From: a virus
DNA: 64,000 nt
Reading direction: 5' to 3' (one strand)
Virus record (IMG/VR): IMGVR_UViG_3300044712_000688
Span: 1-64,000 of that record
Shown here: piece by piece, positions 46,333-63,078 of the stretch
Layout: each line of letters starts with the position of its first letter
Numbering within the stretch: position 1 is the stretch's first letter
The notes under the pieces: generated by a model
Seen by the model: the letters and a program-made list of their open reading frames with translations, nothing else
Database searches by the model: none
What the model was told of the DNA's origin: nothing
Position numbers and translations under genes: made by a program

Positions 46333-46384
46333 TTGCGCTTTTGTCGCGACTTCGTGTAAAGTTGCTCTTGTCGGGAAAACGACA
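46333..46384 (+). promoter_or_regulatory. Promoter with 5'-terminal hairpin
   Basis: TTGCGC (46333-46338), 18-nt spacer, TAAAGT (46357-46362); predicted start about 46369 is the first base of TGTCG-GGAAAA-CGACA (46369-46384). GGAAAGGCACGAAA then precedes the GTG start. Confidence 0.65.
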
Positions 46385-46408
46385 CTCAACTACTGGAAAG
46401 GCACGAAA

Positions 46409-46915
46409 GTGAACCCAACAACATTCGGGGAAGTATCTTCCGAAATTGCTGACGCACTTGCCACTTCGCACGAAGAGGTAAGCAACAAGCCTCGCCTAAT
46501 GGGAATGGGCATTTACCTTGAGGCGCACGCAACCAACTCATACCCACGAACCACGCAAGTTCTGATTACCCCAAGTGGTAAGAATGAAAAGGGTGAGGTC
46601 GTAAGTATGGCTGTTATCTATCGCACCATTAGCGAGTTCTCACCTCGCGCTCAATGGCGCACTAACTTTGTTCGCACTCCAAAAGAGTTTGAGGCTATGT
46701 CGCCTGTTGATAAGGCTGTTCACCTCGCCTCGCGTGCTAACGAAACCACTGCGCGTATGTTCCCAGAGGGATTTACGCCACGACCACGACCAATCGTGTT
46801 CGAACTAACTGATGTTGATTTCAGCGACATTAGTTCTTGGAAAGCACCTGCGTCTGCGTTGCGCCGAATTACTAAAGCGCGTGCCGAAGTGGGCTACCCA
46901 GAAAACCTTTACTAG
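46409..46915 (+). CDS. Hypothetical protein
   Basis: 168 residues, GTG start. SNKPRLMGMGIYLEAHATNS and TRPRPIVFELTD-like beta segments, but no family that I recognise. First gene of the GATC-poor block; likely co-transcribed with the AAA+ ATPase 27 nt downstream. Confidence 0.72.
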   Translation: MNPTTFGEVSSEIADALATSHEEVSNKPRLMGMGIYLEAHATNSYPRTTQVLITPSGKNEKGEVVSMAVIYRTISEFSPRAQWRTNFVRTPKEFEAMSPVDKAVHLASRANETTARMFPEGFTPRPRPIVFELTDVDFSDISSWKAPASALRRITKARAEVGYPENLY

Positions 46916-46942
46916 GGAAATCGAAAAGGACGGAAAACTAAA

Positions 46943-47959
46943 ATGACTATCGAAACCAAAACCCACGAAGAAATCGTGGACGCAATCTACCCAGACCTGA
47001 CTTCACTGATTTTCGGTGTCGCTGTTCAGGGTGAGGACGAAACCAAAGTTCCTGCTGGTCTGACTTCGCTAATGCCGAAAAGTGGACGCGCAAATCTTCG
47101 CGCTAAGATTGGAACTGGAACTCCAAAACCAAAGGCAAAGGCAACTGTGAGCGTAGATGTAATTGAGGGCGCAGAGAAGTATCAGCGTCCAAATGGCGAT
47201 TTCTACTTCTCGCGCTCTTGGGGCGAACATTCAGATGTTGAGGTGCTACGCAAAGCACGCGCAAACAATCAGTATGTGCTTTTGTATGGTGCGCCCGGAA
47301 CTGGCAAAACTGCCCTAGTTGAGGGCGCGTTCCCTAACGAACTTTACACAATTCTTGGTTCAGGCGACACCGAACTTTCGGACTTCATTGGTGGCTATGT
47401 TCAGACCCCAAGTGGTTCGTTCGAATGGGTGGACGGCGTTCTGGTCAAGTCTGCCGAAGAGGGCAAAGTTCTTCTGATTGACGAGATTGGTCTGATTGAC
47501 CCAAAGGTTCTTTCGGCGGTCTATGGTCTAATGGACGGACGCAAGGAAATCGTAATCACTGCGAACCCAGAGCGCGGAACTGTAAAAGCAAAGGACGGCT
47601 TTTATGTGGTCGGCGCGACAAACCCCAATGCGCCGGGCGTGCGCCTAAGCGAGGCGTTGCTCTCACGCTTTTCCATTCAGGCTGAAATGACGACTGACTG
47701 GGCATTGGCTAAGAAGTTGGGCGTTCCTGCGTCTGCTGTTTCAGTCGCACAAAACTTGGCGAAAAAGCAAATGAATGGCGAAACTTCGTGGTCGCCACAA
47801 ATGCGTGAACTGTTGGCATACAAGTCAATCAGCGAAGTGTTTGGAACTAAGTTTGCGATTTCGAACTTGCTTGCGAGTGCGCCCGAACTTGACCGCCCTG
47901 TTGTGGCAGATGTTTTCACTCGCGTGTTCGGTGAAGAGTGTCGCCCTGCGAAGATTTAG
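46943..47959 (+). CDS. MoxR-like AAA+ ATPase
   Basis: 338 residues. Walker A GAPGTGKT (116-123), Walker B VLLIDEIG (about 174-181), then ATNPNAPGVRLSEALLSRF as sensor 1 and arginine-finger region (AAA_5 type). N-terminal 90 residues are not typical. MoxR ATPases act with VWA proteins as chaperones for cofactor or metal insertion; a VWA gene is next. Confidence 0.9.
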   Translation: MTIETKTHEEIVDAIYPDLTSLIFGVAVQGEDETKVPAGLTSLMPKSGRANLRAKIGTGTPKPKAKATVSVDVIEGAEKYQRPNGDFYFSRSWGEHSDVEVLRKARANNQYVLLYGAPGTGKTALVEGAFPNELYTILGSGDTELSDFIGGYVQTPSGSFEWVDGVLVKSAEEGKVLLIDEIGLIDPKVLSAVYGLMDGRKEIVITANPERGTVKAKDGFYVVGATNPNAPGVRLSEALLSRFSIQAEMTTDWALAKKLGVPASAVSVAQNLAKKQMNGETSWSPQMRELLAYKSISEVFGTKFAISNLLASAPELDRPVVADVFTRVFGEECRPAKI

Positions 47960-47982
47960 TTTCCGTCCGAAACTGAAAAGCG

Positions 47983-48015
47983 AAGTGCCAGAGCAATCTG
48001 GCACTTTTGCTTTTT
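47983..48015 (+). terminator. Rho-independent terminator
   Basis: AAGTGCCAGA-GCAA-TCTGGCACTT (47983-48006) followed by TTGCTTTTT. The 48016-48214 spacer beyond it shows no gene. Confidence 0.93.
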
Positions 48016-48244
48016 CGGGGGTCGCAGCTTTGGGGATCGTACGCATTACTTCCCACGAAGAATTAACAAAGCTTTGCCCCTGATCGACCATGGCCCAGGG
48101 TTCACCCGGGCACTAGTAATTAGGGATAGAGCTGCGCCGGACTTGGGATCGAAACTGGCCGAAATCTTTTTGGGAAATGGGGTTGCGCTCAATCGCAAAA
48201 GTGCGCTATCCTAAATGGGTAATCAGTTTTGGAAAGGACTGGAA

Positions 48245-50035
48245 ATGACGCACTACAAACCAACTTCGCGCCTCGCTACTCGCGCTGGCGCAACTCCGTC
48301 TGAATGGTTAGCAACTTGCGCCCAGATTGGTCAAGTCGCTAATGAGTGGGCTGGTCGTAATGACTTGGCTGTCTATGCTGGTGAGGACGCTGGTATGGGT
48401 CAAGCGATTGCTTGCTTTATTGGCGACACTGCTGAAATCGAAATCAACTTGGCTGGCGCGTTTGGAAAAGCAACCACGCCTGAAATGGTTGGCGACTTTA
48501 CACTTCGCGCAACCCAATACGAATGGGCAGAACCAACTGGCGTGATTTACCACGAGGCTCTTCACGCGCGTTCGTCTGATAAGTGGGATTACTCGCTCTT
48601 CGAAAGTGAACACAACAAGGGCAACCAAAATGTTCTTGACGCTTTCTGGTTGCTAGAGGAAAGTCGCATTGAGCGCATTGGCGTTTTGACTTACCCAAAG
48701 AATAGGCTCTTCCTGCGTGCGTCTGCTCTTGGTCTGGCTCTTGGCGAGATTGACGAAGAGGCATTGGCAAAGGCAAGCGAGGTTCGCGTAATGGCGCAAA
48801 TGTCTGGACTTGCTCTCGCTCGCGTGGACGCTGGCGTTGTTGGTCTGGCAGATGTTCAGAAGATTTACGAGCGTGCGCTTGATGTTCTTGGCGAAGAGTT
48901 GTTTGAGAAGTTGCGTTCTGTTTGGGTGCGTTTCCACGCTCTTCCAAATGGCGCGACTGTCGCTGGTCTGGACTTGGCACGCGAGTGGGTTGAGTTGCTA
49001 CGCGAGGCTGACCCAGAGGGCGAGAATGGTCAAGGTGCTGGAATGGCTTTCGTTCTCGCGACCAAAGGCGACTTGGAAGAGGACGCTGGTGGCACTGCGA
49101 TTTCTGTTTCGATTGACTTGGCTGACCAACAGACTGACGAAGAGTGGGCAGAAGAGGCAAAGGGTCGCGCAACCCAGAGCAAGAAGAAGAGCGAAGAGCG
49201 CAAGGTCGCTGAAATTATTTTCGACAAGCGCGAAGAGGGTTCTACTGGAACTAAGTCGCGTTCAGCACTTCGCGAAAAGCGTGCGCCAAAATCAGGTGAG
49301 CGTGCGAGTGCTGTGAAGATTGCCGAAATGTTGGACAAGGCGAAGTATCGTGAGCGTTCAGTTCACATTCGCAAAACCCACGAACCACTTGGCAAACTCA
49401 ATACTCGCAACGCTGTTCAGAATAGTGCTATGAAGTCAATGGGATTGCGTGGCGAACTTCCTGCTTGGAAGTCGAAGTCGCGCAAACACACTGACGACCC
49501 AACGCTGACCATTGGCGTAATGGTGGACATTTCAGGTTCTATGGGTTCGGCTATGGACGCTATGGCGACAACTGCTTGGGTGCTAAGTGAGGCTGGTCGT
49601 AGGGTTCAGGCGAAAACCGCTATGGTCTATTTCGGCGAAGATGTATTCGCAACTCTCAAGGTTGGGCAGAAGTTGGAAGAGGTTTCGGTCTGGTCTGCGC
49701 CTGACGGAACAGAGGTCTTTGATAAAGGGTTCTCGGCTCTCAATGGTGCGCTCGGTCTGACCTACTCGGACGGCGTGCGTTTGTTGGTCGTTGTGTCGGA
49801 CGGAAACTACACCCCGAAAGAAACCGCCAACGCGAAACGGATTGTGAAAGAGTGCGAACAGGCTGGCGTGGCTGTGCTGTTCATTACCCCAAAGGATTGC
49901 TACGGCACTGGCGCACGCGACATTACTAACGGCACGCACGCGGTTCACCTAGACGGAATGGCTGTCGAAAGTATCGCGCTGGAAATCGGCAAGTCTGCGT
50001 CTGACGCTCTCGCGAAAATCGGGGGTGGCGTGTAA
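48245..50035 (+). CDS. VWA-domain protein with HExxH motif
   Basis: 596 residues from the ATG at 48245 (AAAGGACTGGAA upstream); an in-frame ATG at 48215 is less likely. Residues 100-110 contain YHEALHARS, a zinc-metallopeptidase-like HExxH. VWA domain at about 420-590 with the MIDAS DxSxS (VDISGSMG). A charged, Lys/Arg-rich stretch lies between them. This is the layout of CobT-like and phage 'peptidase + VWA' proteins that partner MoxR ATPases. Confidence 0.85.
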   Translation: MTHYKPTSRLATRAGATPSEWLATCAQIGQVANEWAGRNDLAVYAGEDAGMGQAIACFIGDTAEIEINLAGAFGKATTPEMVGDFTLRATQYEWAEPTGVIYHEALHARSSDKWDYSLFESEHNKGNQNVLDAFWLLEESRIERIGVLTYPKNRLFLRASALGLALGEIDEEALAKASEVRVMAQMSGLALARVDAGVVGLADVQKIYERALDVLGEELFEKLRSVWVRFHALPNGATVAGLDLAREWVELLREADPEGENGQGAGMAFVLATKGDLEEDAGGTAISVSIDLADQQTDEEWAEEAKGRATQSKKKSEERKVAEIIFDKREEGSTGTKSRSALREKRAPKSGERASAVKIAEMLDKAKYRERSVHIRKTHEPLGKLNTRNAVQNSAMKSMGLRGELPAWKSKSRKHTDDPTLTIGVMVDISGSMGSAMDAMATTAWVLSEAGRRVQAKTAMVYFGEDVFATLKVGQKLEEVSVWSAPDGTEVFDKGFSALNGALGLTYSDGVRLLVVVSDGNYTPKETANAKRIVKECEQAGVAVLFITPKDCYGTGARDITNGTHAVHLDGMAVESIALEIGKSASDALAKIGGGV

Positions 50036-50423
50036 GTCGGCGTGCCTAAGAAGTCCATTAGCGGATTGAGCAAACTCGTTTCCCCCCTTTCCAAAATCGC
50101 TCTCCGCTAACGGATTAGGAATTCCTATCAGTTCCCCCACTGGTAGGGATTTCGCTTTGCCCGGACTAGACGGATACGCGCAAGAGCTGCGAGCGCGTGA
50201 AGATCGATCTGGACTTTCCACGGATATGTGCCCGGGTCTTAATCAGGATCACGATCACTGGAACTTACCAAAGCTTCGGGGATCGTTAGCTGTGCCCGGG
50301 GCTGATCGATCAGAGAGCAAGGCCGGACCTGGCGAGAGCTGCTACGAAACTTCCAACGAAGATGTTTGTTTTGTCGCTGATGTGTGCTACTATTTACTTG
50401 TTGCCAAAAGAAGGGAAACGACA
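50036..50423 (+). other. Non-coding spacer with terminator and repeat element
   Basis: CCTATCAGT-TCCCCC-ACTGGTAGG (50124-50147) is a probable terminator. After it the spacer is rich in GATC, AGCT and CCCGGG, and carries AACTTCCAACGAA at 50348-50360. TACTAT (50389-50394) then AGAAGGGAAAC lead into the next gene. The long frame that crosses it is not a gene. Confidence 0.7.
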
Positions 50424-50711
50424 ATGTGCGACAACTGTGGAAACGACACCCCAAACTTCGCTGAAATGGAGTTGGACGAGAGGGACATTGCTGGCATTGC
50501 TCTTACTGCCATTGGTGTCTTTGTCGAGGACTACTGTAAGCAGGGATACGCTGACCCAAGGATGTATCGCTTGCTGGAACTTGCGACTGAACTTGGTAAG
50601 AAGTTTGGTAGCGAGGGATTGCTGAACTACTTGGAAACCACCAAGATTTACGCTGGTATGACCATTGACCATTTGATTGAGGAACACAACCTAACTGGAG
50701 AGGAGAACTAA
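50424..50711 (+). CDS. Hypothetical protein
   Basis: 95 residues from the ATG at 50424, preceded by AAGGGAAACGACA. MCDNCGNDTPNF may bind metal; the rest is helical (ELATELGKKFGSEGLLNYLE). No family recognised. Confidence 0.72.
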   Translation: MCDNCGNDTPNFAEMELDERDIAGIALTAIGVFVEDYCKQGYADPRMYRLLELATELGKKFGSEGLLNYLETTKIYAGMTIDHLIEEHNLTGEEN

Positions 50712-50713
50712 AA

Positions 50714-51571
50714 ATGCCAAACTGGGTTTACAACACCCTGAGCGTTTCAGGTTCAAAGGAAAAGATTGCTGAGTTCAAGGAACTGGCAGGACGCAAAGCA
50801 CCAACTGGATTCGATAGCGAAACTGGCGTGCTGACTTACGATAACAAGGAGGAGGTCTTGTCGTTCTGGAACTTCAAAGAGCCAAAGGACAAGGCTGTTT
50901 ACTTTGGGGCGAGCGACTACAAGCCAGAGGGCTACGACTCTTGGACTATGGAAGAGCGTATGGCTCACTCTATGAAGTTCTCATCTGATGGCTGGTATGA
51001 CTGGAACATTCGTGAGTGGGGCACTAAGTGGGACGCTTGTGATGTGGACTTGAATGACGACAGCGAAACCTCGCTGGGCTACTCGTTCAATACGGCGTGG
51101 AGTATTCCCGAGCCTGTGTTCGTGGCTATGGTTCAGAAGTTCCCGACTTTGGACTTCGAGTTCTGGAGTGAGGAAGAGCAGGGCTGGGGTGCGGAGTTCA
51201 CTTCTTCGGACGGCGACGAGGACGGCGAGCGTTCCTTGATTATGACTAAGGAATGGGACATCCCCGACAGCCACCAAGACTATGTGGACAGGGACAGGGA
51301 GGATTCCTGTAATTGTGCGAGCGACCCTGACGACGACGAGTATTGGTATGACGACTGCCCTCGTCCCGAAAAGGAGTTCGAGGTTGTAGTTCGGCAAGTC
51401 ATTCGCATTACGGCGAAGTCGGCTGAATCGGCGTGGGAGATTGCGAACGGCGTGCTGGAAAACTTCACCAACGCCGAGCAACCAGACGGCGTGCGTATTA
51501 GCGAGGACAGCGTGGCGTGGGTTGAGGAAGACGGAGTGCGTGTCTATCCGACCTTGACCGAGGTTGCCTAA
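50714..51571 (+). CDS. YubB/DUF1281-like ferredoxin-fold protein
   Basis: 285 residues. MPNWVYNTLSVSGSKEKIAE and WNIREWGTKWDACDVDL match the Api92/YubB ferredoxin-like family common on plasmids and phages; middle is very acidic with CNCASDPDDDEYW. A second beta-alpha part (FEVVVRQVIRITAKSAESAW) ends it. Function unknown. Two nt after the previous gene. Confidence 0.78.
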   Translation: MPNWVYNTLSVSGSKEKIAEFKELAGRKAPTGFDSETGVLTYDNKEEVLSFWNFKEPKDKAVYFGASDYKPEGYDSWTMEERMAHSMKFSSDGWYDWNIREWGTKWDACDVDLNDDSETSLGYSFNTAWSIPEPVFVAMVQKFPTLDFEFWSEEEQGWGAEFTSSDGDEDGERSLIMTKEWDIPDSHQDYVDRDREDSCNCASDPDDDEYWYDDCPRPEKEFEVVVRQVIRITAKSAESAWEIANGVLENFTNAEQPDGVRISEDSVAWVEEDGVRVYPTLTEVA

Positions 51572-51587
51572 CCCCTAACGGACAGAG

Positions 51588-51622
51588 AACACCAGTGGCG
51601 AGAGAGCTGCTGGTGTTTTTTG
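51588..51622 (+). terminator. Rho-independent terminator
   Basis: AACACCAG (51588-51595) paired with CTGGTGTT (51610-51617), then TTTTGTTT. Confidence 0.88.
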
Positions 51623-51623
51623 T

Positions 51624-51652
51624 TTGACGGATAGGCGTGCGTGGACTACGCT
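51624..51652 (+). promoter_or_regulatory. Consensus promoter, leaderless start
   Basis: TTGACG (51624-51629), 17-nt spacer, TACGCT (51647-51652), six bases, ATG at 51659. Confidence 0.7.
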
Positions 51653-51658
51653 GATCGT

Positions 51659-51961
51659 ATGAAAAATGAAATGCTTTACCGCGAAGCCCTCGGACACATT
51701 GTTCGAGAGGAACGGATCGATCAGGGACTGACTCTACGCCAGGTCGCAGCTCGTGCGAACATCGCACTCGGATACCTAAGCGAGGTCGAGCGCGGACAGA
51801 AAGAGCCGTCCTCTGTAATTGTGGAATGCCTAGCAACCGGACTTGGTCTAAGTACAGGCGAGCTGATTATTCGCGCCGGGATCCTGGTGGGTGGATACAA
51901 CATTCCAGATACTGTCGAAGAGCTGCTGGTCGATCTAGGCCAAAAAACTTTCGCCAAATAG
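51659..51961 (+). CDS. XRE-family regulator, ClgR-like
   Basis: 100 residues from the ATG at 51659. HIVREERIDQGLTLRQVAARA and ALGYLSEVERGQKEPSSVIV form a Cro/C1-type HTH very like actinobacterial ClgR, the activator of Clp protease genes. Unlike its neighbours it is rich in GATC and AGCT and uses a leaderless promoter, so it looks transplanted into this block. May bind the host clp promoters or the repeated phage element. Confidence 0.85.
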   Translation: MKNEMLYREALGHIVREERIDQGLTLRQVAARANIALGYLSEVERGQKEPSSVIVECLATGLGLSTGELIIRAGILVGGYNIPDTVEELLVDLGQKTFAK

Positions 51962-52036
51962 TTTGTATTTTCTCTGACTTAGTGTAAACTGGGGGCGTGC
52001 CTGAAAAAGAGTAGGGCGTAGGGAAAGGGAAGTCCA

Positions 52037-52510
52037 ATGGGACTAGATATGTATCTATCTGCTCGCAAGTACGTGAGTGGTTACGATTTCAACAAAGAGC
52101 CAGAAAAGCAGGCGTACGCTGAAGTTCTATCTGCTAGTGGCTTGACCAAGTCAGACTTGGAATATGGGAACCCAAGTGCCAACATCGTGATTAGCGTGGG
52201 GTACTGGCGCAAGGCGAACCAAATCCACAACTGGTTTGTTCAGAATGTTCAGGGTGGGGTTGATGAGTGCCAAAGGGCTTGGGTATCTCGTGAGCAACTG
52301 GCTGAACTTCTTCAGGCGTGCGAAACTGTTTTGGCTGATGCCACGAAGGCCGAAGAGTTGTTGCCACCACAGAGTGGGTTCTTCTTCGGAAGTACTGACC
52401 TTGATGAGTGGTACTACGAAGATGTGAAGTACACCGCCAAAATGCTGAACCACCTTTTGACTTCGGAAAATCTGAAGGAGTACGATTTCGAATACCAATC
52501 CAGTTGGTAG
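52037..52510 (+). CDS. Conserved phage protein
   Basis: 157 residues. MGLDMYLSARKYVSG, VGYWRKANQIHNWFVQNVQG, LPPQSGFFFGSTDLDEWY: a family found in many phages with no known function. TAAACT (51984-51989) may be the -10. A strong terminator follows. Confidence 0.82.
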   Translation: MGLDMYLSARKYVSGYDFNKEPEKQAYAEVLSASGLTKSDLEYGNPSANIVISVGYWRKANQIHNWFVQNVQGGVDECQRAWVSREQLAELLQACETVLADATKAEELLPPQSGFFFGSTDLDEWYYEDVKYTAKMLNHLLTSENLKEYDFEYQSSW

Positions 52511-52526
52511 TCGTTTCCCTAAAAAG

Positions 52527-52562
52527 CAAGAACCCTCGCCTTCGGGCGGGGGTTCTTGTTTG
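52527..52562. terminator. Rho-independent terminator
   Basis: CAAGAACCCTCGCC-TTCG-GGCGGGGGTTCTTG (52527-52558), flanked by A-run and T-run; could work both ways. Confidence 0.93.
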
Positions 52563-52638
52563 GCGTGAGCGCAGCTGAACCGGATCAATGGATTACGCGC
52601 TCGCGGTTTGGGTGATCCAGGCTGGGGGCTACCGTCGG

Positions 52639-52725
52639 AACTTCCAACGAAAAAAATTTCTCGTATGAAGTTGCGTATTATCGGCGTATCCTGCTAAACT
52701 CTAAGGGTGGACGAAAAAGTTCACT
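52639..52725 (+). promoter_or_regulatory. Element, promoter and 5' hairpin of ssb
   Basis: AACTTCCAACGAA (52639-52651), then TTGCGT and TAAACT, then GTGGAC-GAAAAA-GTTCAC near the predicted 5' end, and finally AAAGGGAAACAA before the ATG at 52749. Confidence 0.6.
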
Positions 52726-52748
52726 TGGAAACTATCAAAGGGAAACAA

Positions 52749-53138: not shown

Positions 53139-53297
53139 CCGCCAACTCAACCCGACAACCTGAGCAAGTTGTAAAACTGCTCGCCACTTATTTCTGGCTG
53201 GTCCAGGCGCGATCGATCTGCAGCTGGAGATCAAGGCTCGAAAAAAAGTTTCTGGCGTGTCGTTGAAAATGTCAGTGGGTGGTGCTACATTTGAAGT

Positions 53298-53744: not shown

Positions 53745-53810
53745 TTCGTTGAAAGTTGCCAAAATGTCGGCATAGTATGCTAAAGTTCTATTAGTTGGGA
53801 AATGCCCAAC
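53745..53810 (+). promoter_or_regulatory. Element, promoter and 5' hairpin module
   Basis: TTCGTTGAAAGTT (53745-53757), TAGTAT (53773-53778) or TAAAGT (53781-53786) as -10, then GTTGGG-AAATG-CCCAAC (53794-53810) at the predicted 5' end. Confidence 0.62.
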
Positions 53811-54515: not shown

Positions 54516-54667
54516 TGCCCTGGCTGGTTGATTGATCGCCGGAGATCCTGCAGCTGAAAAGTTTGAAGATCTTAGGGCTGAAAAAGTCTGGGCGAGTTGT
54601 TGCAAAATGTCAGGGGTCTATGCAATAATTAGGTGTGGTCAAGTTGACCACCTACGAAGGGAAACTA

Positions 54668-55238: not shown

Positions 55239-55423
55239 TCTGGAGATCTTCGAACTAGCTGACCCGCCGGACCGCCTGGACTGCAGCTCGAGAGTGGAAA
55301 ATTTTCGTTACAAATCTGTTACCAAAAAAGTTGCCTCTGGACTTGACTTGCGAAATGTATGCCACTAGGCTTGGTATTACAAGCGAACACAAGGTTGGCT
55401 TGTTTTCTAGGGAAAGGACGAAA

Positions 55424-56376: not shown

Positions 56377-56462
56377 GGGTGGTCGATCCGGCGTGATGCG
56401 TTTCGATCGGATTCAAAGCTGCAGCTCGCCAGGGCCGGATCGATCGACACGCAGCGAAAACA

Positions 56463-56475
56463 TTCGTTGAAAGTT
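56463..56475 (+). repeat. TTCGTTGAAAGTT element
   Basis: Copy of the intergenic element just before the promoter region of the next gene. Confidence 0.7.
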
Positions 56476-56521
56476 TTCCTTATGTATGGTAAGTTTGTAG
56501 TGGATAGAAAGGGGTAGCCAA

Positions 56522-56839: not shown

Positions 56840-56851
56840 AAGTGAGCAAAC

Positions 56852-56884
56852 CGGAACCCCGCCCAAGTGGCGGGGTTTTGTTTT
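56852..56884 (+). terminator. Rho-independent terminator
   Basis: ACCCCGCC-CAAGT-GGCGGGGT (56856-56876), then TTTGTTTT. Confidence 0.92.
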
Positions 56885-56953
56885 GATCGGATCTAGTGCC
56901 GAGAGCTCGCCCCGGGTTCGCAGCTGATCGATCTGAAGACACGAAAGAAAATG

Positions 56954-57015
56954 TTCGTTGGAAGTTGCGTGTTGTTTCGAAATGCGGTATCTTTTTATTA
57001 GGCGAAAACGCCTAA
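56954..57015 (+). promoter_or_regulatory. Element, promoter and 5' hairpin module
   Basis: TTCGTTGGAAGTT (56954-56966) overlaps the -35 TTGCGT (56965-56970); 17-nt spacer; TATCTT (56988-56993); then TTAGGCG-AAAA-CGCCTAA (56998-57015) at the predicted start of the RNA. ACGAAAGGGAAACGAA follows before the ATG. Confidence 0.72.
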
Positions 57016-57031
57016 ACGAAAGGGAAACGAA

Positions 57032-57349
57032 ATGGCAATGACCAAGAGAACAGCACACCTTTTGACTAGTGACTTTTGCCTAAAGGGTCACGACATTCGG
57101 GATAAAGAAGTTGCTCTCACTAGACACAATAGGCGCAACGGTGACGGCGAAATTGTTGGCGTGACGATTAGGTGTCGTGTCTGCTGGAACGATACCAGTA
57201 GGGAGCAGATGTATAAATTCAGGAAAACCGCTGGAACACCTGCTCTACAAATCAAGCGCTTACTAATCAAGCACCCAGAACTCGCACCTGCTCTACTGGA
57301 ACACGCTAAAAACCTGCTGTTGGCGCAGGCTATGAGCGTCAAGTCTTAG
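57032..57349 (+). CDS. Hypothetical Cys-containing protein
   Basis: 105 residues. SDFCLKGHDIRDKEV and IRCRVCWNDTSRE suggest a zinc site like those of small HNH-related proteins, but no HNH residues are present. C-terminal half is helical and basic. Function unknown. Confidence 0.72.
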   Translation: MAMTKRTAHLLTSDFCLKGHDIRDKEVALTRHNRRNGDGEIVGVTIRCRVCWNDTSREQMYKFRKTAGTPALQIKRLLIKHPELAPALLEHAKNLLLAQAMSVKS

Positions 57350-57396
57350 CAACTATCTCTGTAACAACTACCAACCAAAAACGAAAGGGAAACAAA

Positions 57397-57777
57397 ATGG
57401 CAAACTTTGATTTGATCGAGGAACGCGTTGAAGACGCAAAGGCAATTGCTTGGGACACTTGCCACAAGATTTATGTTCTTATGGATGATGAACAAGTCTC
57501 ACTTATGCGTAAGTATGAGTATGACCCGATTATCACCAAAGACGAAATGACCGCAACTGAAATGGCAGAGACTATCAAGAAGTGGTATGACGAAAGTTGT
57601 GGTTTGCGTTTCGTGAGCGCGGTCTCAACTATGCCCGAAGGTCAAGACGCTAACGAAGGTTTCGAAACCCTAATCGGGCAATTCGAAGAAGACGATTGTG
57701 AAGATTGTGGTGAGCGCGGTTGCGCTGGTGTCTGTAATGACTACGAAGACGAAGACGAAGAAGAAGAAGAAGACTAG
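57397..57777 (+). CDS. Hypothetical zinc/acidic protein
   Basis: 126 residues. Helical first 100 residues (LIEERVEDAKAIAWDTCHKI, YVLMDDEQVSLM), then CEDCGERGCAGVC and a tail of Glu and Asp. CGAAAGGGAAACAAA leader. Follows the previous gene by 47 nt, apparently without a terminator between. Confidence 0.73.
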   Translation: MANFDLIEERVEDAKAIAWDTCHKIYVLMDDEQVSLMRKYEYDPIITKDEMTATEMAETIKKWYDESCGLRFVSAVSTMPEGQDANEGFETLIGQFEEDDCEDCGERGCAGVCNDYEDEDEEEEED

Positions 57778-57856
57778 GGGGTGAGCTAAGCTTCGGCCGC
57801 GCTCGCGGATCGAAGTGGTCGCCCTGGTCGATCGATCGCCGGACACGAAAATAATC

Positions 57857-57916
57857 TTCGTTAGAAGTTGCGCTAACAACCAAAATACAGTATCTTTGTA
57901 GTAGGCAAATTGCCTA
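57857..57916 (+). promoter_or_regulatory. Element, promoter and 5' hairpin module
   Basis: TTCGTTAGAAGTT (57857-57869) overlaps TTGCGC (57868-57873); 17-nt spacer; TATCTT (57891-57896); TAGGCA-AAT-TGCCTA (57902-57916) at the predicted 5' end. Confidence 0.72.
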
Positions 57917-57934
57917 GAAAGTAGGGAAAGAAAA

Positions 57935-58144
57935 ATGAGTTTCGGAGAGCCGAAGTATCCAGATGTTCAGGTTCAGTTGGTCGGGGAAGACGGAAACGCT
58001 TTCGCGATTATGGGGCGTGTGGCTAGCGCACTAAAGAGCGCAGGTGTGTCTCAGTCTGAGATTGACGAATACTATGCCGAGAGCACAAGTGGCGATTATG
58101 ACCACTTGCTACGCACCGCAGTCAAATGGGTGGCGGTGGCATAA
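57935..58144 (+). CDS. Conserved small phage protein
   Basis: 69 residues. YPDVQVQLVGEDGNAFAIMG and SGDYDHLLRTAVKWV belong to a family frequent in phages, of unknown function. GTAGGGAAAGAAAA leader. The stop overlaps the next ATG. Confidence 0.8.
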   Translation: MSFGEPKYPDVQVQLVGEDGNAFAIMGRVASALKSAGVSQSEIDEYYAESTSGDYDHLLRTAVKWVAVA

Positions 58145-58491
58145 TGGGAGACCGCTCGCTGATTCAGATTGAGAGCAAGTCTTTCAAGACCCCGATTACC
58201 CTTTATGGACACTGGTCGGGTGGAGATAACCTAATCGCTGTTCGCAATGTGCTGACTCGCACTGACCGAATCGGAGACCCAAATTACCTAACCGCGCAGC
58301 TGTTCTATGAGTTCGCGGTGGCTTTGGGTGGCTACGCCGGAGAGTTGTCTTTCGGGATTGACGCCTATGGTGCTAGCGAGAGCGATGTCTGGGTTGATAA
58401 CGACACAGTGGTTGTGAACGCCGACACTGGAGAGTATTCAGTCGGTGGAGAATTGTTTACCGAATTTGCGAAAGTCGCAGATAGCGTGTAA
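58144..58491 (+). CDS. Conserved small phage protein
   Basis: 115 residues from the ATG at 58144 overlapping the previous stop. MGDRSLIQIESKSFKTPITL and YGHWSGGDNLIAVRNVL are typical of a phage family with no known role; the pair with the preceding gene is common. The 3' end also carries the promoter of candidate RNA 2. Confidence 0.8.
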   Translation: MGDRSLIQIESKSFKTPITLYGHWSGGDNLIAVRNVLTRTDRIGDPNYLTAQLFYEFAVALGGYAGELSFGIDAYGASESDVWVDNDTVVVNADTGEYSVGGELFTEFAKVADSV

Positions 58492-58494
58492 ACT
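58466..58494 (+). promoter_or_regulatory. Promoter of candidate small RNA 2
   Basis: TTGCGA (58466-58471), 17-nt spacer, TAAACT (58489-58494); located within the last codons of the preceding gene. Confidence 0.6.
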
Positions 58495-58500
58495 GATAGA

Positions 58501-58617
58501 AGTCACTTGGGCTTGAGATTACTCGCTCGGGTGATTATGCGGAAGGAGTTATCCCCCTTTCACCTTCCGCAAAGAGAGCGGTAGCAATTCCCCCCAATTG
58601 CTACCGTTTTTCTTTTG
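58501..58617 (+). ncRNA. Candidate phage small RNA 2
   Basis: About 115 nt from the predicted start to the T-run. Two strong hairpins: TGCGGAAGG/CCTTCCGCA (58538-58571), which buries a GGAAGGAG sequence in its stem and loop edge, and CGGTAGCAATT-CCCCCC-AATTGCTACCG (58579-58606) with TTTTTCTTTT, a terminator. No reading frame follows the ribosome-like sequence. The 5' part shares ACTTGGGCTTGA and TCGCTCG with candidate RNA 1. Confidence 0.5.
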
Positions 58618-58705
58618 TCTGGATTAGGGCCGCGCTCGCGGTGATCGATCAGAGCTGCACCCTGGCCGGACCGGAGCTTGCCGGGATCGAAACGCGCTCG
58701 CGGAA

Positions 58706-58718
58706 TTCGTTTGAAGTT
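58706..58718 (+). repeat. TTCGTTTGAAGTT element
   Basis: Copy of the intergenic element, ending at the TTGC of a -35-like box for the next gene. Confidence 0.72.
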
Positions 58719-58774
58719 GCTTGCTTTTCTTGTTGTTGTGGAGTAACCTGTTGGTATCCAAAGAAAGGGAAACA

Positions 58775-58915
58775 ATGGAAACCAAAGAGATTACCGAGTG
58801 CTACAAATGCCAAACCGAGATTGAAGCATTCGTTGGGCAAGTTCATCCGTTGTGTGATGAGTGTCAAGAAAGTTTTGACGATTGGTTCGCACAACAATTG
58901 CGGATGTTCAAGTAA
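58775..58915 (+). CDS. 46-residue zinc-ribbon peptide
   Basis: From the ATG at 58775 with AAGAAAGGGAAACA leader. CYKCQTEIEAF and CDECQESFDDW give a four-Cys zinc ribbon. TTGG-TAT-CCAA hairpin lies in the leader. Function unknown. Confidence 0.7.
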   Translation: METKEITECYKCQTEIEAFVGQVHPLCDECQESFDDWFAQQLRMFK

Positions 58916-58992
58916 TCGCACGACACGACTAACCTAGTTGCGTGTTTGAGCAAACTAGGCTAATCTGGAATTACCTAGAAAGGGGAAACGAA

Positions 58993-59142
58993 ATGGCAAA
59001 GCAAGACACGATTTGGATTGGTTGCTGGGATTGTGGTAAGACTATTGAAGTGCCTTGGATTGGGGACTATTCAAGTCGCCAGATTTGTGCCGAGTGTAAA
59101 GCAGAAAGGGCTGAAAAATGGGCAGTAATCTCGAAGGGCTAA
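58993..59142 (+). CDS. 49-residue zinc-ribbon protein
   Basis: From the ATG at 58993 (AAAGGGGAAACGAA leader). CWDCGKTIEVP and CAECKAERAEKW: four-Cys zinc ribbon. Promoter TTGCGT-17-TAATCT upstream. Overlaps the next frame. Confidence 0.7.
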   Translation: MAKQDTIWIGCWDCGKTIEVPWIGDYSSRQICAECKAERAEKWAVISKG

Positions 59143-59342
59143 GTCGCTACAAAAGGCGCAAGGAAATTATGAACGCACGAAAGACCGCACTAGAAGTCTT
59201 TGGGGCGCTCGCCGAGTATGACGCAAAGCCAGAAGTCTTTTCGATTTTCGATGGAATGGAATTCGAAGTCGTGAACGAAACTGGAATGGCGTTGGATGTT
59301 GAGTTCGTTGGTCGCACCATTACAATTAGGAATTGGAAATAA
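59118..59342 (+). CDS. Hypothetical protein
   Basis: 74 residues from the ATG at 59118, which has AAAGGGCTG upstream; an ATG at 59169 with AAGGAAATT is equally possible and would give 57 residues. Core ALEVFGALAEYDAKPE and DVEFVGRTITIRNW is a small alpha/beta fold. Function unknown. Confidence 0.65.
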   Translation: MGSNLEGLSRYKRRKEIMNARKTALEVFGALAEYDAKPEVFSIFDGMEFEVVNETGMALDVEFVGRTITIRNWK

Positions 59343-59344
59343 TC

Positions 59345-59539
59345 GTGATTGGATTTCACCGTTTTATGGAAAAGTTTTGGCGAGTGATTAGCGCGATTGC
59401 CTTTCGCACTTTTCACACTACGCAGACGCTCGCGCATAAGTCTTATGTAAAGGGTGGTCGCCACGGTCGCCGTCGTCAGGAACGCAAACCCCTAACCGCA
59501 ATCTGGAAGTGGTGGCAGAATGTCAAAGCGCAATTCTGA
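59345..59539 (+). CDS. 64-residue basic protein
   Basis: GTG start after GGAAATAATC; a TTG 12 nt earlier is possible. Arg/Lys/His-rich (KGGRHGRRRQERKPLTAIWK), probably nucleic-acid or membrane associated. Overlaps the next gene by 20 nt. Confidence 0.6.
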   Translation: MIGFHRFMEKFWRVISAIAFRTFHTTQTLAHKSYVKGGRHGRRRQERKPLTAIWKWWQNVKAQF

Positions 59540-59681
59540 GTTCGCGATTATTTGGCGTGGCCTTGCTGTTGGGCTAGGGTTTGTCTTTATTATGGGGTTC
59601 GCGATCGGTTATCGTGACGGGCTTACCCCCTGGTTTTTGCTTGGCGCAGCTACTGTTTGTTGGTGGCTATCAAGAAATTGA
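59520..59681 (+). CDS. 53-residue membrane protein
   Basis: Two hydrophobic segments (FAIIWRGLAVGLGFVFIMGF and WFLLGAATVCWWL) joined by AIGYRDGLTP. Starts inside the previous gene. Function unknown. Confidence 0.62.
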   Translation: MSKRNSEFAIIWRGLAVGLGFVFIMGFAIGYRDGLTPWFLLGAATVCWWLSRN

Positions 59682-59682
59682 T

Positions 59683-59732
59683 TTGACTTTTTAGGGAAAC
59701 GCAGTAAACTGATTCTGTTAGCAAATGCTGAC
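59683..59732 (+). promoter_or_regulatory. Promoter with 5'-terminal hairpin
   Basis: TTGACT (59683-59688), 16-nt spacer, TAAACT (59705-59710), six bases, then GTTAGCA-AA-TGCTGAC (59717-59732). ACGAAAGGGAAACAAA follows. Confidence 0.7.
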
Positions 59733-59752
59733 ACTTACGAAAGGGAAACAAA

Positions 59753-60124
59753 ATGGGAACAAAGGTATTCGCAATTCGTATCAATGAAGATGGCGGATTT
59801 GTTTTCGGGGACGAAACTCACGAAGTAATTTCACTTGACTTTCTACAGTCATTCGTTGGCGGTTGGGTTCAGGTTGTGCCACTATCTGGTTCACTCTCTG
59901 GCTTGTCAATGTGGCTAAACGAAGAAGGCAAGTTTTCAGACCTTCCGCTAAATGAGTTGGCAACCGCAATTTGGGAAGACTCATACGGCAAGACTGATTT
60001 TATCGTTGGCAATGTTCTAATCACTGGTGGCGAAGACTACGATGGTGAGATTGAAACTCTCACTAGTGAAGAAACTGATAAGATTATGGAAGTTGTTCTG
60101 AAAGCAATGGAACACTCTCACTAA
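59753..60124 (+). CDS. DUF3846-like protein
   Basis: 123 residues. ISLDFLQSFVGGWVQVVPLS, MWLNEEGKFSDLPLNELATA and FIVGNVLITGGEDYDGEIE match the DUF3846 pattern (VGGxIxxV, NEEGKL, LPxNxxAT, GNxLI). Found in phages and plasmids; function unknown. Confidence 0.8.
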   Translation: MGTKVFAIRINEDGGFVFGDETHEVISLDFLQSFVGGWVQVVPLSGSLSGLSMWLNEEGKFSDLPLNELATAIWEDSYGKTDFIVGNVLITGGEDYDGEIETLTSEETDKIMEVVLKAMEHSH

Positions 60125-60314
60125 GTTTCGTTTCCCTACGAAAAAAGACCTAGGCTAAGTCTCTAAACTGGCCTTTTATCACGCCTAGATTATGGAAGCT
60201 CGCGCTCGCAGTTTTGATCAAAATTGTTCGCAGCTTGGCCCGGCCCTGGCCTAGTTGGTCGATCCGCGCTCGCCGGCCTTGGTCGATCCGCGCAGCTCGA
60301 CACGCTCGCAAACA
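60125..60314 (+). other. Non-coding GATC/AGCT-rich spacer
   Basis: No gene. A weak CTAGGC/GCCTAG hairpin follows the stop, then a spacer of TCGATC, GCTCGC, CGCCGG and AGCT words as in the other inter-cassette gaps. Confidence 0.6.
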
Positions 60315-60381
60315 TTCGTTGGAAGTTGCTTGACTTTTACTCGCGCAGTGTGGCAAGATTGAGTTAGCCGAAAGGCACTAA
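60315..60381 (+). promoter_or_regulatory. Element, promoter and 5' hairpin module
   Basis: TTCGTTGGAAGTT (60315-60327), TTGACT (60330-60335), 18-nt spacer, CAAGAT (60354-60359), then TTAGCC-GAAA-GGCACTAA hairpin (60364-60381). Confidence 0.65.
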
Positions 60382-60396
60382 GGAAAGGGAAACAAA

Positions 60397-60825
60397 ATGG
60401 AAACTGTAGTAATGGCATTCGAAACTTTCGAGATTACCAATTCTTGTATCTGTGAAGATTACGATGAAGACACCGAGATGTCGTCACCTAGCAACGAATG
60501 TTGGGGTTGCTATGACGATGAAGTTAGCAACTTGTGGTATGAAGTCATCAAGCCTTGGATGAACGCGAATGGCTACGATGAAGCCACTAACCTAATCATT
60601 CGCGGAAGTGGAATGACTTGGCAACGCTTGAGCGGATACGCTTACGCGACACCGAAGACGCTTGTTGAGAAGTTGTCTATCAACGGCGATTGGACACTAA
60701 GGTTCAAGATTACAGACGGCGCGAAGACACTCACCGCTGTTCGCTACTCTCACGATGAGCCAGTTGGCACTGGCGAGTTTACTTTCGAAGTTGCCGAAGA
60801 AGAAGACGAAGACGAATTGTTCTAG
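60397..60825 (+). CDS. Hypothetical protein
   Basis: 142 residues, GGAAAGGGAAACAAA leader. CICEDYDEDTEM and CWGCYDDEV may form a metal site; later NLIIRGSGMTWQRLSGYAYA and DWTLRFKITD are beta-rich; acidic end. No family recognised. Confidence 0.74.
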   Translation: METVVMAFETFEITNSCICEDYDEDTEMSSPSNECWGCYDDEVSNLWYEVIKPWMNANGYDEATNLIIRGSGMTWQRLSGYAYATPKTLVEKLSINGDWTLRFKITDGAKTLTAVRYSHDEPVGTGEFTFEVAEEEDEDELF

Positions 60826-60845
60826 CGCGACACGCTCGCGACACG

Positions 60846-60867
60846 CAACCGCCCGATGTGGCGGTTG
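60846..60867 (+). terminator. Terminator overlapping next promoter
   Basis: CAACCGCC-CGATGT-GGCGGTTG, followed by TTGTGTTTTT, which also forms the -35 of the next cassette. Confidence 0.75.
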
Positions 60868-60918
60868 TTGTGTTTTTGGCAGATGTGTGGCATACTTTTG
60901 TTATCGGCAGAAAGCCGA
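60868..60918 (+). promoter_or_regulatory. Promoter with 5'-terminal hairpin
   Basis: TTGTGT (60868-60873), 17-nt spacer, CATACT (60891-60896), then TCGGC-AGAAA-GCCGA (60904-60918). Confidence 0.65.
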
Positions 60919-60936
60919 AAAACGAAAGGGAAACAA

Positions 60937-61107
60937 ATGGCACTAGACGCACAGACCGCAAACACCGTTCGACACTTGCTAATGCGCTTGTCGGCAGAGA
61001 CAACCGTAGACGCTTGGTTGCTCGCAGAGAATGAAGAATTGGCAGAAATGTGGAAAGACGGCGCAACCTATGAGCAAATGCTCGAATGGGTAAACGAAAA
61101 CTTTTAG
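60937..61107 (+). CDS. 56-residue helical protein
   Basis: From the ATG at 60937 with AACGAAAGGGAAACAA leader; the longer frame runs through the hairpin and is not used. TANTVRHLLMRLSAETTVDA, WLLAENEELAEMW: helical, acidic. Function unknown. Confidence 0.7.
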   Translation: MALDAQTANTVRHLLMRLSAETTVDAWLLAENEELAEMWKDGATYEQMLEWVNENF

Positions 61108-61121
61108 CCCGAAGAAATGGA

Positions 61122-61152
61122 AAGCCCTCGCGAAAGCGGGGGTTTTCTTTTT
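61122..61152 (+). terminator. Rho-independent terminator
   Basis: CCCTCGC-GAAA-GCGGGGG (61125-61142), then TTTTCTTTTT. The spacer beyond (61153-61317) is AGCT/GATC-rich with TTCGTTCGAAGTT at 61208-61220 and has no gene. Confidence 0.9.
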
Positions 61153-61317
61153 ACGCGCTCGCGGGTTTTTGATTCTGATCGATCACCGGCCAGGACCGCG
61201 CAGCTTGTTCGTTCGAAGTTGGCAGCTTGTTCGCCGGATACCGCCGGGCTTAGGCAGCTTGTTCGCCGGGGCAAGGCCGGAAGCCGTTATCAATTTGTTA
61301 CAAAAATTATTTGGAAA

Positions 61318-61369
61318 TTGACTTGTATTTTCGAAAAATAGAGTATGCTTATTACATAAGCCGAAAGGC
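61318..61369 (+). promoter_or_regulatory. Promoter with 5' GAAA-loop hairpin
   Basis: TTGACTTGTAT (61318-61328) and TATGCT (61344-61349), matching the two modules downstream; leader begins with GCC-GAAA-GGC (61360-61369). Confidence 0.6.
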
Positions 61370-61389
61370 AAAAACGAAAGGGAAACGAA

Positions 61390-61722
61390 ATGCTACTAAA
61401 CACTAAGACCGAGATTGCTTTCACTACTGGCGAGATTGACGGCAAGAAGTTCATCGGCGCAACCAAAGCAGACGCAAGCGCAGTTTTCACCGCTTGGCTA
61501 AACGACAACCTAGATTGGGTTTCGGCAGGGCGTGAGAACAACGCGGTTGAGATTGTTGGCGTATCTTATGACTTGGTTTCGTTCAACAATTCTGTTTATG
61601 TCGCTTGGTTGTGCAATGAATGCGAGAGCAACGATTGCGAGAGCGATGGCGAACCGCACGAAGAAGAGATTGGCAATTGCCGATTCGAAGATTTGGAATT
61701 GGTTAGCGAGTATCGGCGCTAA
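61390..61722 (+). CDS. Hypothetical protein
   Basis: 110 residues. AFTTGEIDGKKFIGATKADA, VYVAWLCNECESNDCESDGE: a Cys cluster near residue 75-80. ACGAAAGGGAAACGAA leader. No family recognised. Confidence 0.74.
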   Translation: MLLNTKTEIAFTTGEIDGKKFIGATKADASAVFTAWLNDNLDWVSAGRENNAVEIVGVSYDLVSFNNSVYVAWLCNECESNDCESDGEPHEEEIGNCRFEDLELVSEYRR

Positions 61723-61735
61723 CCCCAAACCCGAA

Positions 61736-61766
61736 AGCCCCTAGCAGAGATGCTAGGGGTTTCTTT
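61736..61766 (+). terminator. Rho-independent terminator
   Basis: CCCCTAGCA-GAGA-TGCTAGGGG (61738-61759), then TTTCTTTTT. Confidence 0.93.
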
Positions 61767-62071
61767 TTGTGTGGATTGTTTCGCGCTCGCGGTCTCTAAT
61801 TTTGATCGAAATTGCTCGCAGCTTGTTGGTCGATCGACCGAAGTTTTTGGCAGCTCGCGCCGGGTTGTTCGCAGCTCATACCCCAAACCTTGCCGGGTTG
61901 TTCGTTAGAAGTTTGCCGGATTGCTCGCAGCTCATAGTCGGATTGCGCCGGGCCTTGCCGGGTTAGAAGCAGCTCGCGCTCGCCGGATTGGTTGGAAGTT
62001 GGTTAGCAGTCTGCCGGGGCGAGTGCTAATTTCCCGTTATCAAACTGTGATAAAAATTTTCTCGAATTGAC
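61767..62071 (+). other. Non-coding spacer of short repeated words
   Basis: About 300 bp with no gene. It is made of recurring words: GCAGCTCG or GCAGCTTG (five times), CCGGGTTG or CCGGATTG, GATCGA, TTGTTCG, and two variants of the repeat element (TTCGTTAGAAGTT near 61901 and GGTTGGAAGTT near 61991). Confidence 0.65.
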
Positions 62072-62123
62072 TTGACAAAAGAAAAAATACCGCTTATGCT
62101 TATTCCATAAGCCAAACGGCTTA
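62072..62123 (+). promoter_or_regulatory. Promoter with 5'-terminal hairpin
   Basis: TTGACA (62072-62077), 17-nt spacer, TATGCT (62095-62100), then TAAGCC-AAAC-GGCTTA (62108-62123) starting at the predicted +2. Confidence 0.75.
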
Positions 62124-62148
62124 GATACAAAAACGAAAGGGAAACAAA

Positions 62149-62451
62149 ATGACCGCAAAGACCGCAACCGTAGCAGTAGACCTAGTTTCACTCATCGCCG
62201 AGTTGGTAGATGTGAAGAAGGCAAAGGCAGACCTAGCAAACCGCGAGAGCGCAATTCGCAAGGTTGTCTTGGCAGAAACTGGAAATACCGCAACCGTAAT
62301 CGCAGACCCAAAAACTGGCGAAGTGATTGCCGAAGTGACCGAGAGCGTTCGCCGTTCGGTAAACGATTGGGAAGAGTTCGAAGCAACTTACCCAGAAGCA
62401 TACGAAGCCTTGGTGAAGTTCACCGATGTTTTGACCCTGAACACAAAGTAA
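62149..62451 (+). CDS. Hypothetical protein, paralogue of 55424-55723
   Basis: 100 residues. Shares SxRESxIRKxVL, then EVTESVRRSVNDWEEFEATY and PEAYEALVKFTDVLTLNT with the earlier copy. It has TGNTATVIADPKTGEV where the other has AVQIADEAGV. Lys/Ala-rich N-terminal helix. Two diverged copies in separate cassettes suggest dosage or different timing. Function unknown. Confidence 0.75.
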   Translation: MTAKTATVAVDLVSLIAELVDVKKAKADLANRESAIRKVVLAETGNTATVIADPKTGEVIAEVTESVRRSVNDWEEFEATYPEAYEALVKFTDVLTLNTK

Positions 62452-62463
62452 AGGGAAAGCGAA

Positions 62464-62500
62464 AGCCCCTAGCCCGAAAGGGTTAGGGGTTTTCTTTTGC
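62464..62500 (+). terminator. Rho-independent terminator
   Basis: CCCCTAGCCC-GAAA-GGGTTAGGGG (62466-62489), then TTTTCTTTT. Confidence 0.93.
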
Positions 62501-62565
62501 GCTCGCCAGGATTTGCCTTGGTCGATCCGCGCAACACGCTGAAGAAAAAAAGTTTTGGAATTGAC

Positions 62566-62616
62566 TTGACAAATAAATTAGACCCTGTATGCTTATTACA
62601 TAAGCCAAAAGGGCTT
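62566..62616 (+). promoter_or_regulatory. Promoter with 5'-terminal hairpin
   Basis: TTGACA (62566-62571), 16-nt spacer, TATGCT (62588-62593), then AAGCC-AAAAG-GGCTT (62602-62616). Confidence 0.72.
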
Positions 62617-62644
62617 GAGAAAAAAACGAAAGGGAAACAGAAAA

Positions 62645-62938
62645 ATGACTTACACGAAGCACGAAGTAGCGCAGGGTATCGCAGCTTGGTTCGCAATTCT
62701 ATCGGCAGGAATTGTCGCGCCGTTTAGCCTAGAGTTCGTTGGCGTTATCAACTCGATTGGATACGCAGACCTAGCCGAGAAGCAGGCCGACATTGCGCCT
62801 TACCTATTCGGTTCGCTCGCCGTCTTGGTTGTGGCTATGGCGGTTCTGATTGGTTCGTATGTGGCCGAGAACAGGTTCTGGCTACGCCGTAGCCTTGCCG
62901 ACAAACTGGAAAGGCTCGCGCTCGCCGTTCGTGGCTAA
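62645..62938 (+). CDS. Small membrane protein
   Basis: 97 residues from the ATG at 62645 (CGAAAGGGAAACAGAAAA leader). Two long hydrophobic segments: GIAAWFAILSAGIVAPFSLE and PYLFGSLAVLVVAMAVLIGS, then a basic tail (RRSLADKLERLALAVRG). Function unknown; similar in design to the next gene. Confidence 0.72.
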   Translation: MTYTKHEVAQGIAAWFAILSAGIVAPFSLEFVGVINSIGYADLAEKQADIAPYLFGSLAVLVVAMAVLIGSYVAENRFWLRRSLADKLERLALAVRG

Positions 62939-62952
62939 CCCCCTAGCCGAGA

Positions 62953-62988
62953 AGCCCCTAGCCGATTGTGGCTAGGGGTTTTTCTTTA
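62953..62988 (+). terminator. Rho-independent terminator
   Basis: CCCCTAGCC-GATTGT-GGCTAGGGG (62955-62978), then TTTTTCTTT. Confidence 0.92.
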
Positions 62989-63025
62989 CCGCGACACGCT
63001 CGAAAAAAAAGTTTGCGGAAACCCT

Positions 63026-63078
63026 TGACAATTGGTTTAGGGTTGGTAAATTAGAAGTGTTAGGTGATACCGCCTAGC
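63026..63078 (+). promoter_or_regulatory. Promoter with 5' hairpin
   Basis: TTGACA, about 16 nt, TAAATT, then TAGG/CCTA-type hairpin (TAGGTGATACCGCCTA) and AACGAAAGGGAAATGAA before the ATG at 63098. Confidence 0.6.

What the first reader, a model, noticed from the sequence alone, without database searches (positions are those of the whole stretch)
46333..63078. Right block: 5'-terminal hairpins with changing sequence but conserved pairing, then GAAAGGGAAAC
In separate cassettes the predicted RNA starts directly with a short stem-loop: TGTCG/CGACA (46369), GTTGGG/CCCAAC (53794), GTGGTCAA/TTGACCAC (54645 region), TTAGGCG/CGCCTAA (56998), TAGGCA/TGCCTA (57902), GTTAGCA/TGCTGAC (59717), TTAGCC/GGC..TAA (60364), TCGGC/GCCGA (60904), TAAGCC/GGCTTA (62108), AAGCC/GGCTT (62602). 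Stem sequences differ while pairing is retained, and loops are A-rich. Each is followed by ACGAAAGGGAAACAAA and ATG. This is compensatory variation, so the structure itself is under selection, perhaps to block 5'-dependent mRNA decay. Start-associated sequences of cluster K mycobacteriophages are a loose analogue of the constant part, but I know of no described set of varied 5' caps like this.
Basis: seen in the sequence. Interest (0 to 1): 0.82.

Follow-up and report, generated by a model that had tools for sequence, protein, structure and literature searches.

The report
Varied hairpins capping phage mRNA starts
Many genes in one block of this uncultured actinobacterial phage make messages predicted to begin, at the very first base, with a small RNA hairpin whose letters change from gene to gene and phage to phage while the pairing is kept, which suggests the phage protects or handles the start of its messages by shape alone.

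Summary
In the right block about 15 promoters are followed, exactly where transcription should start (7 nt after the -10, marked by a pyrimidine at -1 and a purine at +1), by a short RNA hairpin. In the four closest phages every block leader whose Shine-Dalgarno (SD) lies 18-40 nt from the predicted 5' end has one (25 of 25); leaders with a closer SD have none (0 of 26). Stem starts peak sharply at +1 in four phage groups, far above shuffled controls, and are absent from cultured Microbacterium relatives. Orthologous genes keep the hairpin while both arms change: among 59 further diverged leaders 25 have one, 2.7 expected. G-U pairs outnumber A-C mismatches (18 to 6), which points to RNA, not a DNA operator. 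The GAAAGGGAAAC part is an extended SD and a separate module. My best explanation is protection of the 5' end from 5'-dependent decay; this is inferred only, and a study in M. smegmatis found no general effect of 5' structure on half-life. A new variant of a known kind (ompA-type 5' stem-loops); phage SPO1 has a similar, smaller set by my own scan.

The parts
46333..46384 (+). promoter TTGCGC-18-TAAAGT and 5' hairpin TGTCG/CGACA (46369-46384), gene 46409-46915
   Evidence: hairpin identical in three relatives
51963..52018 (+). promoter and weak 5' hairpin 51996-52018, gene 52037-52510
   Evidence: (z -1.3)
52671..52724 (+). promoter and 5' hairpin GTGGAC/GTTCAC (52707-52724, one G-U pair), SSB gene 52749-53138
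   Evidence: (SSB, PF00436); stem kept, loop length changes in relatives
53781..53810 (+). -10 TAAAGT and 5' hairpin GTTGGG/CCCAAC (53794-53810), gene 53823-54032
   Evidence: compensated G-C to A-U change in two relatives
54600..54651 (+). promoter and 5' hairpin GTGGTCA/TGACCAC (54635-54651), gene 54668-55192
   Evidence: compensated change to GTAGTC/GGCTAC in relatives
55343..55403 (+). promoter and 5' hairpin ACAAGC..GCTTGT with inner stem (55379-55403), gene 55424-55723
56965..57015 (+). promoter TTGCGT-17-TATCTT and 5' hairpin TTAGGCG/CGCCTAA (56998-57015), gene 57032-57349
   Evidence: (z -5.2)
57868..57916 (+). promoter and 5' hairpin TAGGCA/TGCCTA (57902-57916), gene 57935-58144
59683..59732 (+). 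promoter TTGACT-16-TAAACT and 5' hairpin GTTAGC/GCTGAC (59717-59732), gene 59753-60124
   Evidence: replaced by TGCTAG/CTAGCA in G002
60330..60381 (+). promoter and 5' hairpin GCC-GAAA-GGC with possible outer TTA/TAA (60364-60381), gene 60397-60825
60868..60918 (+). promoter and 5' hairpin TCGGC/GCCGA (60904-60918), gene 60937-61107
61344..61369 (+). -10 TATGCT (61344-61349) and short GNRA hairpin GCC-GAAA-GGC (61360-61369), gene 61390-61722
   Evidence: sequence; the automatic promoter call for this gene (AAAAAT) is probably wrong
62072..62123 (+). promoter TTGACA-17-TATGCT and 5' hairpin TAAGCC/GGCTTA (62108-62123), gene 62149-62451
62566..62617 (+). promoter TTGACA-16-TATGCT and 5' hairpin TAAGCC/GGGCTTG (62601-62617), gene 62645-62938
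63025..63078 (+). promoter TTGACA-16-TAAATT and 5' hairpin GTTAGG/CCTAGC (63059-63078), gene 63098-63331
57383..57393 (+). GAAAGGGAAAC (extended SD) at an internal gene without a promoter hairpin: shows the SD is a separate module
56467..56521 (+). example of the second leader class: promoter, no hairpin, SD less than 10 nt from the predicted 5' end (also 58775, 58993)

Best explanation
The hairpins are 5'-terminal RNA stem-loops kept by selection for shape. Each small transcription unit starts transcription at or within one or two bases of a 5-9 bp stem, so that the nascent mRNA has almost no free single-stranded 5' end. I propose that this hinders enzymes that need a single-stranded 5' end (RppH-type pyrophosphohydrolase, the RNase E 5' sensor, RNase J), prolonging the life of early mRNAs. 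Units whose SD lies within about 17 nt of the 5' end lack a hairpin, perhaps because a bound ribosome covers the end instead. Shown here by computation: position at the predicted +1, excess over chance, compensated changes, strand-specific G-U tolerance, the dichotomy with SD distance. Inferred: actual 5' ends, the enzyme, and any effect on half-life.
For: Stem starts peak at -2..+3 of the predicted +1 and hardly elsewhere: 27 seen/4.9 expected (window phage and three relatives), 29/4.1, 19/3.4 and 12/1.1 in three other sets. The predicted +1 is A or G in about 70% and -1 is a pyrimidine in 66-75%, also in leaders without hairpins. 67 of 77 distinct hairpins leave at most one unpaired 5' base, while RppH of B. 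subtilis needs at least two (PMC3997798). Leaders with SD at 18-40 nt: 25 of 29 have a hairpin, the four others lying outside the block; leaders with SD at 17 nt or less: 0 of 26. Among ortholog groups 25 of 59 further diverged leaders keep a hairpin, 2.7 expected; examples GTTCC/GGAAC to ATCCC/GGGAT and GTTGGG/CCCAAC to GTTGGA/TCCAAC. 18 G-U against 6 A-C single departures. 5' secondary structures of this kind stabilise mRNA in E. coli (review PMC3997798).
Against: No transcript has been mapped and no decay measured. In M. smegmatis, also an actinobacterium, 5' UTR hairpins did not stabilise a reporter and 5' structure did not correlate with half-life (PMC11728522). Phages with the same cassette layout do without hairpins (DSL-LC01; L043/L044/L046). 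A hairpin needs room, so part of the dichotomy with SD distance is geometry. The host and its RNases are unknown.
Confidence: 0.5

Rival explanations
1. Translation insulation: the hairpin folds the otherwise floppy leader away so that the SD stays single-stranded and accessible.
For: Hairpins occur only where the leader is long enough to interfere; the segment after them is A-rich and open in the predicted folds.
Against: Hairpin starts are tied to +1 while the distance from hairpin end to SD varies widely (sd 9.7 nt); stems are not in excess elsewhere in leaders. Caveat: the small spread around +1 is limited by the search range.
Confidence: 0.2
2. DNA operator: the dyads at +1 are binding sites for a dimeric repressor, as proposed for the ESAS repeats of cluster K mycobacteriophages.
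For: Dyads at the start point of strong promoters; an HTH protein is encoded in the block (51659-51961).
Against: 59 different 5' arms and 45 different loops among 77 hairpins, loops 3-9 nt; G-U departures exceed A-C (18 to 6, P 0.003, not corrected for relatedness), whereas a double-stranded site treats the two alike.
Confidence: 0.07
3. Transcription-level signal: the first RNA hairpin to emerge acts on RNA polymerase (escape, anti-pausing), like HK022 put RNA.
For: Position at the very start of the transcript; HK022 putL lies just downstream of its promoter (PMC9378689).
Against: put RNAs are about 70 nt, two stem-loops and share sequence; here one short stem without conserved sequence, and many units end at a near terminator.
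Confidence: 0.1
4. Recognition by an RNA-binding protein of phage or host that reads a hairpin with an A-rich loop.
For: Loops are 58% A.
Against: Loop sequence and length vary widely; unpaired parts of these leaders are A-rich anyway.
Confidence: 0.1

Closest known systems
5'-terminal stem-loops of the ompA/papA type (E. coli mRNA stabilisers)
   Same: Short stem at or next to the mRNA 5' end, few unpaired 5' bases, SD downstream and free
   Different: Here a whole set in one phage block, different sequence in each gene and each phage; effect on decay untested; host probably actinobacterial
SAS/ESAS of cluster K mycobacteriophages (TM4, Adephagia)
   Same: Dyad near the promoter start point followed by an SD-containing conserved element before short early genes
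   Different: SAS sequence absent; ESAS repeats are conserved in sequence, come in two copies, one over the -35, and in TM4 the second mostly begins at the end of the -10, so the RNA would start inside it (read; PMC3203893, PMC11373665)
Early transcripts of Bacillus phage SPO1 (host-takeover region)
   Same: By my scan several early leaders fold into GC-rich hairpins close to +1 (genes 41, 43, 45, 47)
   Different: Few cases, more unpaired 5' bases (often about four), unrelated phage; not checked against a publication (not held)
HK022 put RNA
   Same: Structured RNA at the start of early phage transcripts
   Different: About 70 nt, two stem-loops with shared sequence, acts on RNA polymerase (PMC9378689)
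Actinomycetia phage DSL-LC01 (OQ999401)
   Same: Homologous genes (AAA ATPase 74%, VWA-type protein 42%), similar short promoter-leader-SD-gene units
   Different: One conserved promoter and mostly unstructured leaders

Membership tests
5'-terminal mRNA-stabilising stem-loop (ompA type) | stem begins at or within a few nt of the transcript 5' end | tested here: met
   predicted ends only:
5'-terminal mRNA-stabilising stem-loop (ompA type) | sequence can vary if pairing is kept | tested here: met
5'-terminal mRNA-stabilising stem-loop (ompA type) | lengthens mRNA half-life | not testable with these tools
   needs experiment; negative precedent in M. smegmatis
SAS/ESAS of cluster K | 13-bp GGGATAGGAGCCC before the start codon | tested here: not met
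   0 matches with up to 2 mismatches
SAS/ESAS of cluster K | conserved 17-bp inverted repeats, two copies around the promoter | tested here: not met
   59 different 5' arms of 77, single hairpin downstream of the promoter
HK022 put | about 70 nt, two stem-loops with shared sequence | tested here: not met
   definition from PMC9378689
described Rfam RNA family | match at gathering score | tested here: not met
   no match in 44000-64000

The most novel reading that the evidence does not exclude
Several lineages of actinobacterial phages have acquired or kept, gene by gene, sequence-free hairpin caps on their early mRNAs that shield them from a 5'-end-dependent nuclease of the host, of a defence system or of the phage itself, so that structure alone marks phage mRNA; units without a cap rely on a ribosome bound next to the 5' end.
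Probability: 0.3. Interest if true: 0.8.

Novelty: new variant of a known kind. Interest (0 to 1): 0.62.

Why it matters
Whether 5' structure matters for mRNA fate in actinobacteria is open: host data from M. smegmatis say it hardly does. These phages carry dozens of natural stem variants, placed at the predicted start base, with a natural hairpin-free class beside them. That makes the question directly testable and may yield compact expression leaders.

Tried and rejected
A near-identity search in cultured phages found nothing. A search with the ATPase in GTDB genomes gave no relative, so the host is unknown. Rfam: none. Hairpin and SD as one element: rejected, since the SD occurs without a hairpin (57383, 58763) and hairpins occur with other SDs. 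DNA operator: unlikely. The consensus promoter scan found only slightly more sites than expected (18 against 11.9); I relied on a more permissive weight matrix of my own tied to SD and gene starts, whose -10 choice is visibly wrong for 61390 and probably for a few sites inside genes. Alignment of the 54668 leaders by MAFFT misplaced the stem of the third row, so those counts were read by eye. Control phages without a clear excess: A3Wally, Pumpernickel (0 of 25 stems), GodonK, Mareelih; T4 part 5 stems against 2.1 expected but none by folding energy.

Full report
Setting. The window is bases 1-64000 of an uncultured virus record of 136,298 bp with tmRNA and tRNA genes, ribonucleotide reductase, ThyX, polynucleotide kinase and RNA ligase genes. 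Its nearest deposited relative by the block's ATPase is Actinomycetia phage DSL-LC01 from Dishui Lake, so an actinobacterial host is likely but not shown. The right block holds small genes in short units: promoter, short leader, SD, gene and, for many, an intrinsic terminator.

Observation. Promoters were called with a weight matrix of my own, and +1 was set at the 7th base after the -10. That choice is supported by a pyrimidine at -1 (66-75%) and a purine at +1 (about 70%), with or without hairpin. No 5' end has been measured.

More than chance. In the window genome 12 of 35 leaders have a stem of at least 5 bp at +1, 3.0 expected with dinucleotide shuffles; in G026 20 of 52 against 4.1; in G028 12 of 36 against 1.0. 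An energy-based measure agrees. Over all leaders the stem start peaks at -2..+3 and not elsewhere. The P values treat leaders as independent, which related leaders are not.

Structure kept, sequence not. Leaders of orthologous genes were grouped by blastp. Taking leaders less than 75% identical within a group, 25 of 59 beyond the first have a hairpin, 2.7 expected; the first leader of each group was chosen for having a hairpin and is not counted. Groups without any hairpin were left out, so this is a rate within hairpin-bearing groups. Clear compensated pairs: GTTCC/GGAAC to ATCCC/GGGAT, two pairs changed on both sides (the alignment is small, 40 of 500 shuffles reach the same score); GTTGGG/CCCAAC to GTTGGA/TCCAAC; GTGGTC/GACCAC to GTAGTC/GGCTAC. 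Stems with one departure from Watson-Crick pairing show 18 G-U and 6 A-C, against 1.8 and 2.2 expected, which points to RNA.

Two leader classes. In the window phage and its three close relatives, leaders with the SD at most 17 nt from +1 have no hairpin (0 of 26) and those with the SD at 18-40 nt nearly all have one (25 of 29, the four others lying outside the block). Part of this is geometric, since a hairpin needs space; that long leaders without hairpin are missing in the block is not.

Spread. On a tree of the ATPase the trait needs at least three changes on well supported branches and five in all. It is strong in the window clade, in G026, in the L033-L047 clade and in G028, weak or absent in DSL-LC01, L042-L044, L046 and the cultured Microbacterium and Gordonia phages. 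My labelling of genomes as having the trait was by eye from these counts.

Mechanism. The position, the small number of unpaired 5' bases (at most one in 67 of 77) and the freedom of sequence fit protection of the 5' end, as known from E. coli and B. subtilis (PMC3997798). Against it stands the negative result in M. smegmatis (PMC11728522). I hold it at 0.5. Insulation of the SD, an effect on RNA polymerase, an RNA-binding protein and a DNA operator remain as rivals, in about that order of likelihood.

Known relatives of the idea. SAS/ESAS is not the same: no SAS in the window, conserved and duplicated repeats there (PMC3203893; PMC11373665). SPO1 early leaders show similar hairpins in a scan made here; the SPO1 papers are not held, so whether this is already described I cannot say. 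In ten literature searches I found no description of a phage-wide set of varied 5' hairpins; most subscription papers are not in that library.

Noticed in passing
46000-63700 (coding parts and spacers): In the block's coding parts many 4-bp palindromes are nearly absent (TGCA 1, TTAA 0, CATG 1, ACGT 3, GATC 6, AGCT 6; 28-45 expected with codon-preserving shuffles), not so in 1-44 kb; the spacers are instead rich in GATC, AGCT and CCGG. Early blocks of relatives are also depleted, G026 and G028 without any GATC in the stretches read.
   Followed up: partly
55973-56029: Possible 18-residue Cys/His-rich micropeptide MCEDFPCCGHDHGDCPRR in its own promoter-terminator unit; the reading frame and most residues are kept in three relatives.
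   Followed up: partly
56190-56370: Promoter-terminator unit without a clear gene, possibly a small RNA; found in one close relative only.
   Followed up: partly
53747, 56465, 56956, 57859, 58708, 60317: Conserved element CGTTNGAAGTT (or CGTTGAAAGTT) just upstream of or overlapping the -35 of several block promoters.
   Followed up: no
48219-48245: Leader of the 596-aa gene folds so that its SD lies in or next to the hairpin loop, identical in three relatives.
   Followed up: no
L019 (DSL-LC01), intergenic stretches: Nearly identical promoter TCTAAAGATGTTATAATAGAATCA repeated before many genes, with mostly unstructured leaders.
   Followed up: no
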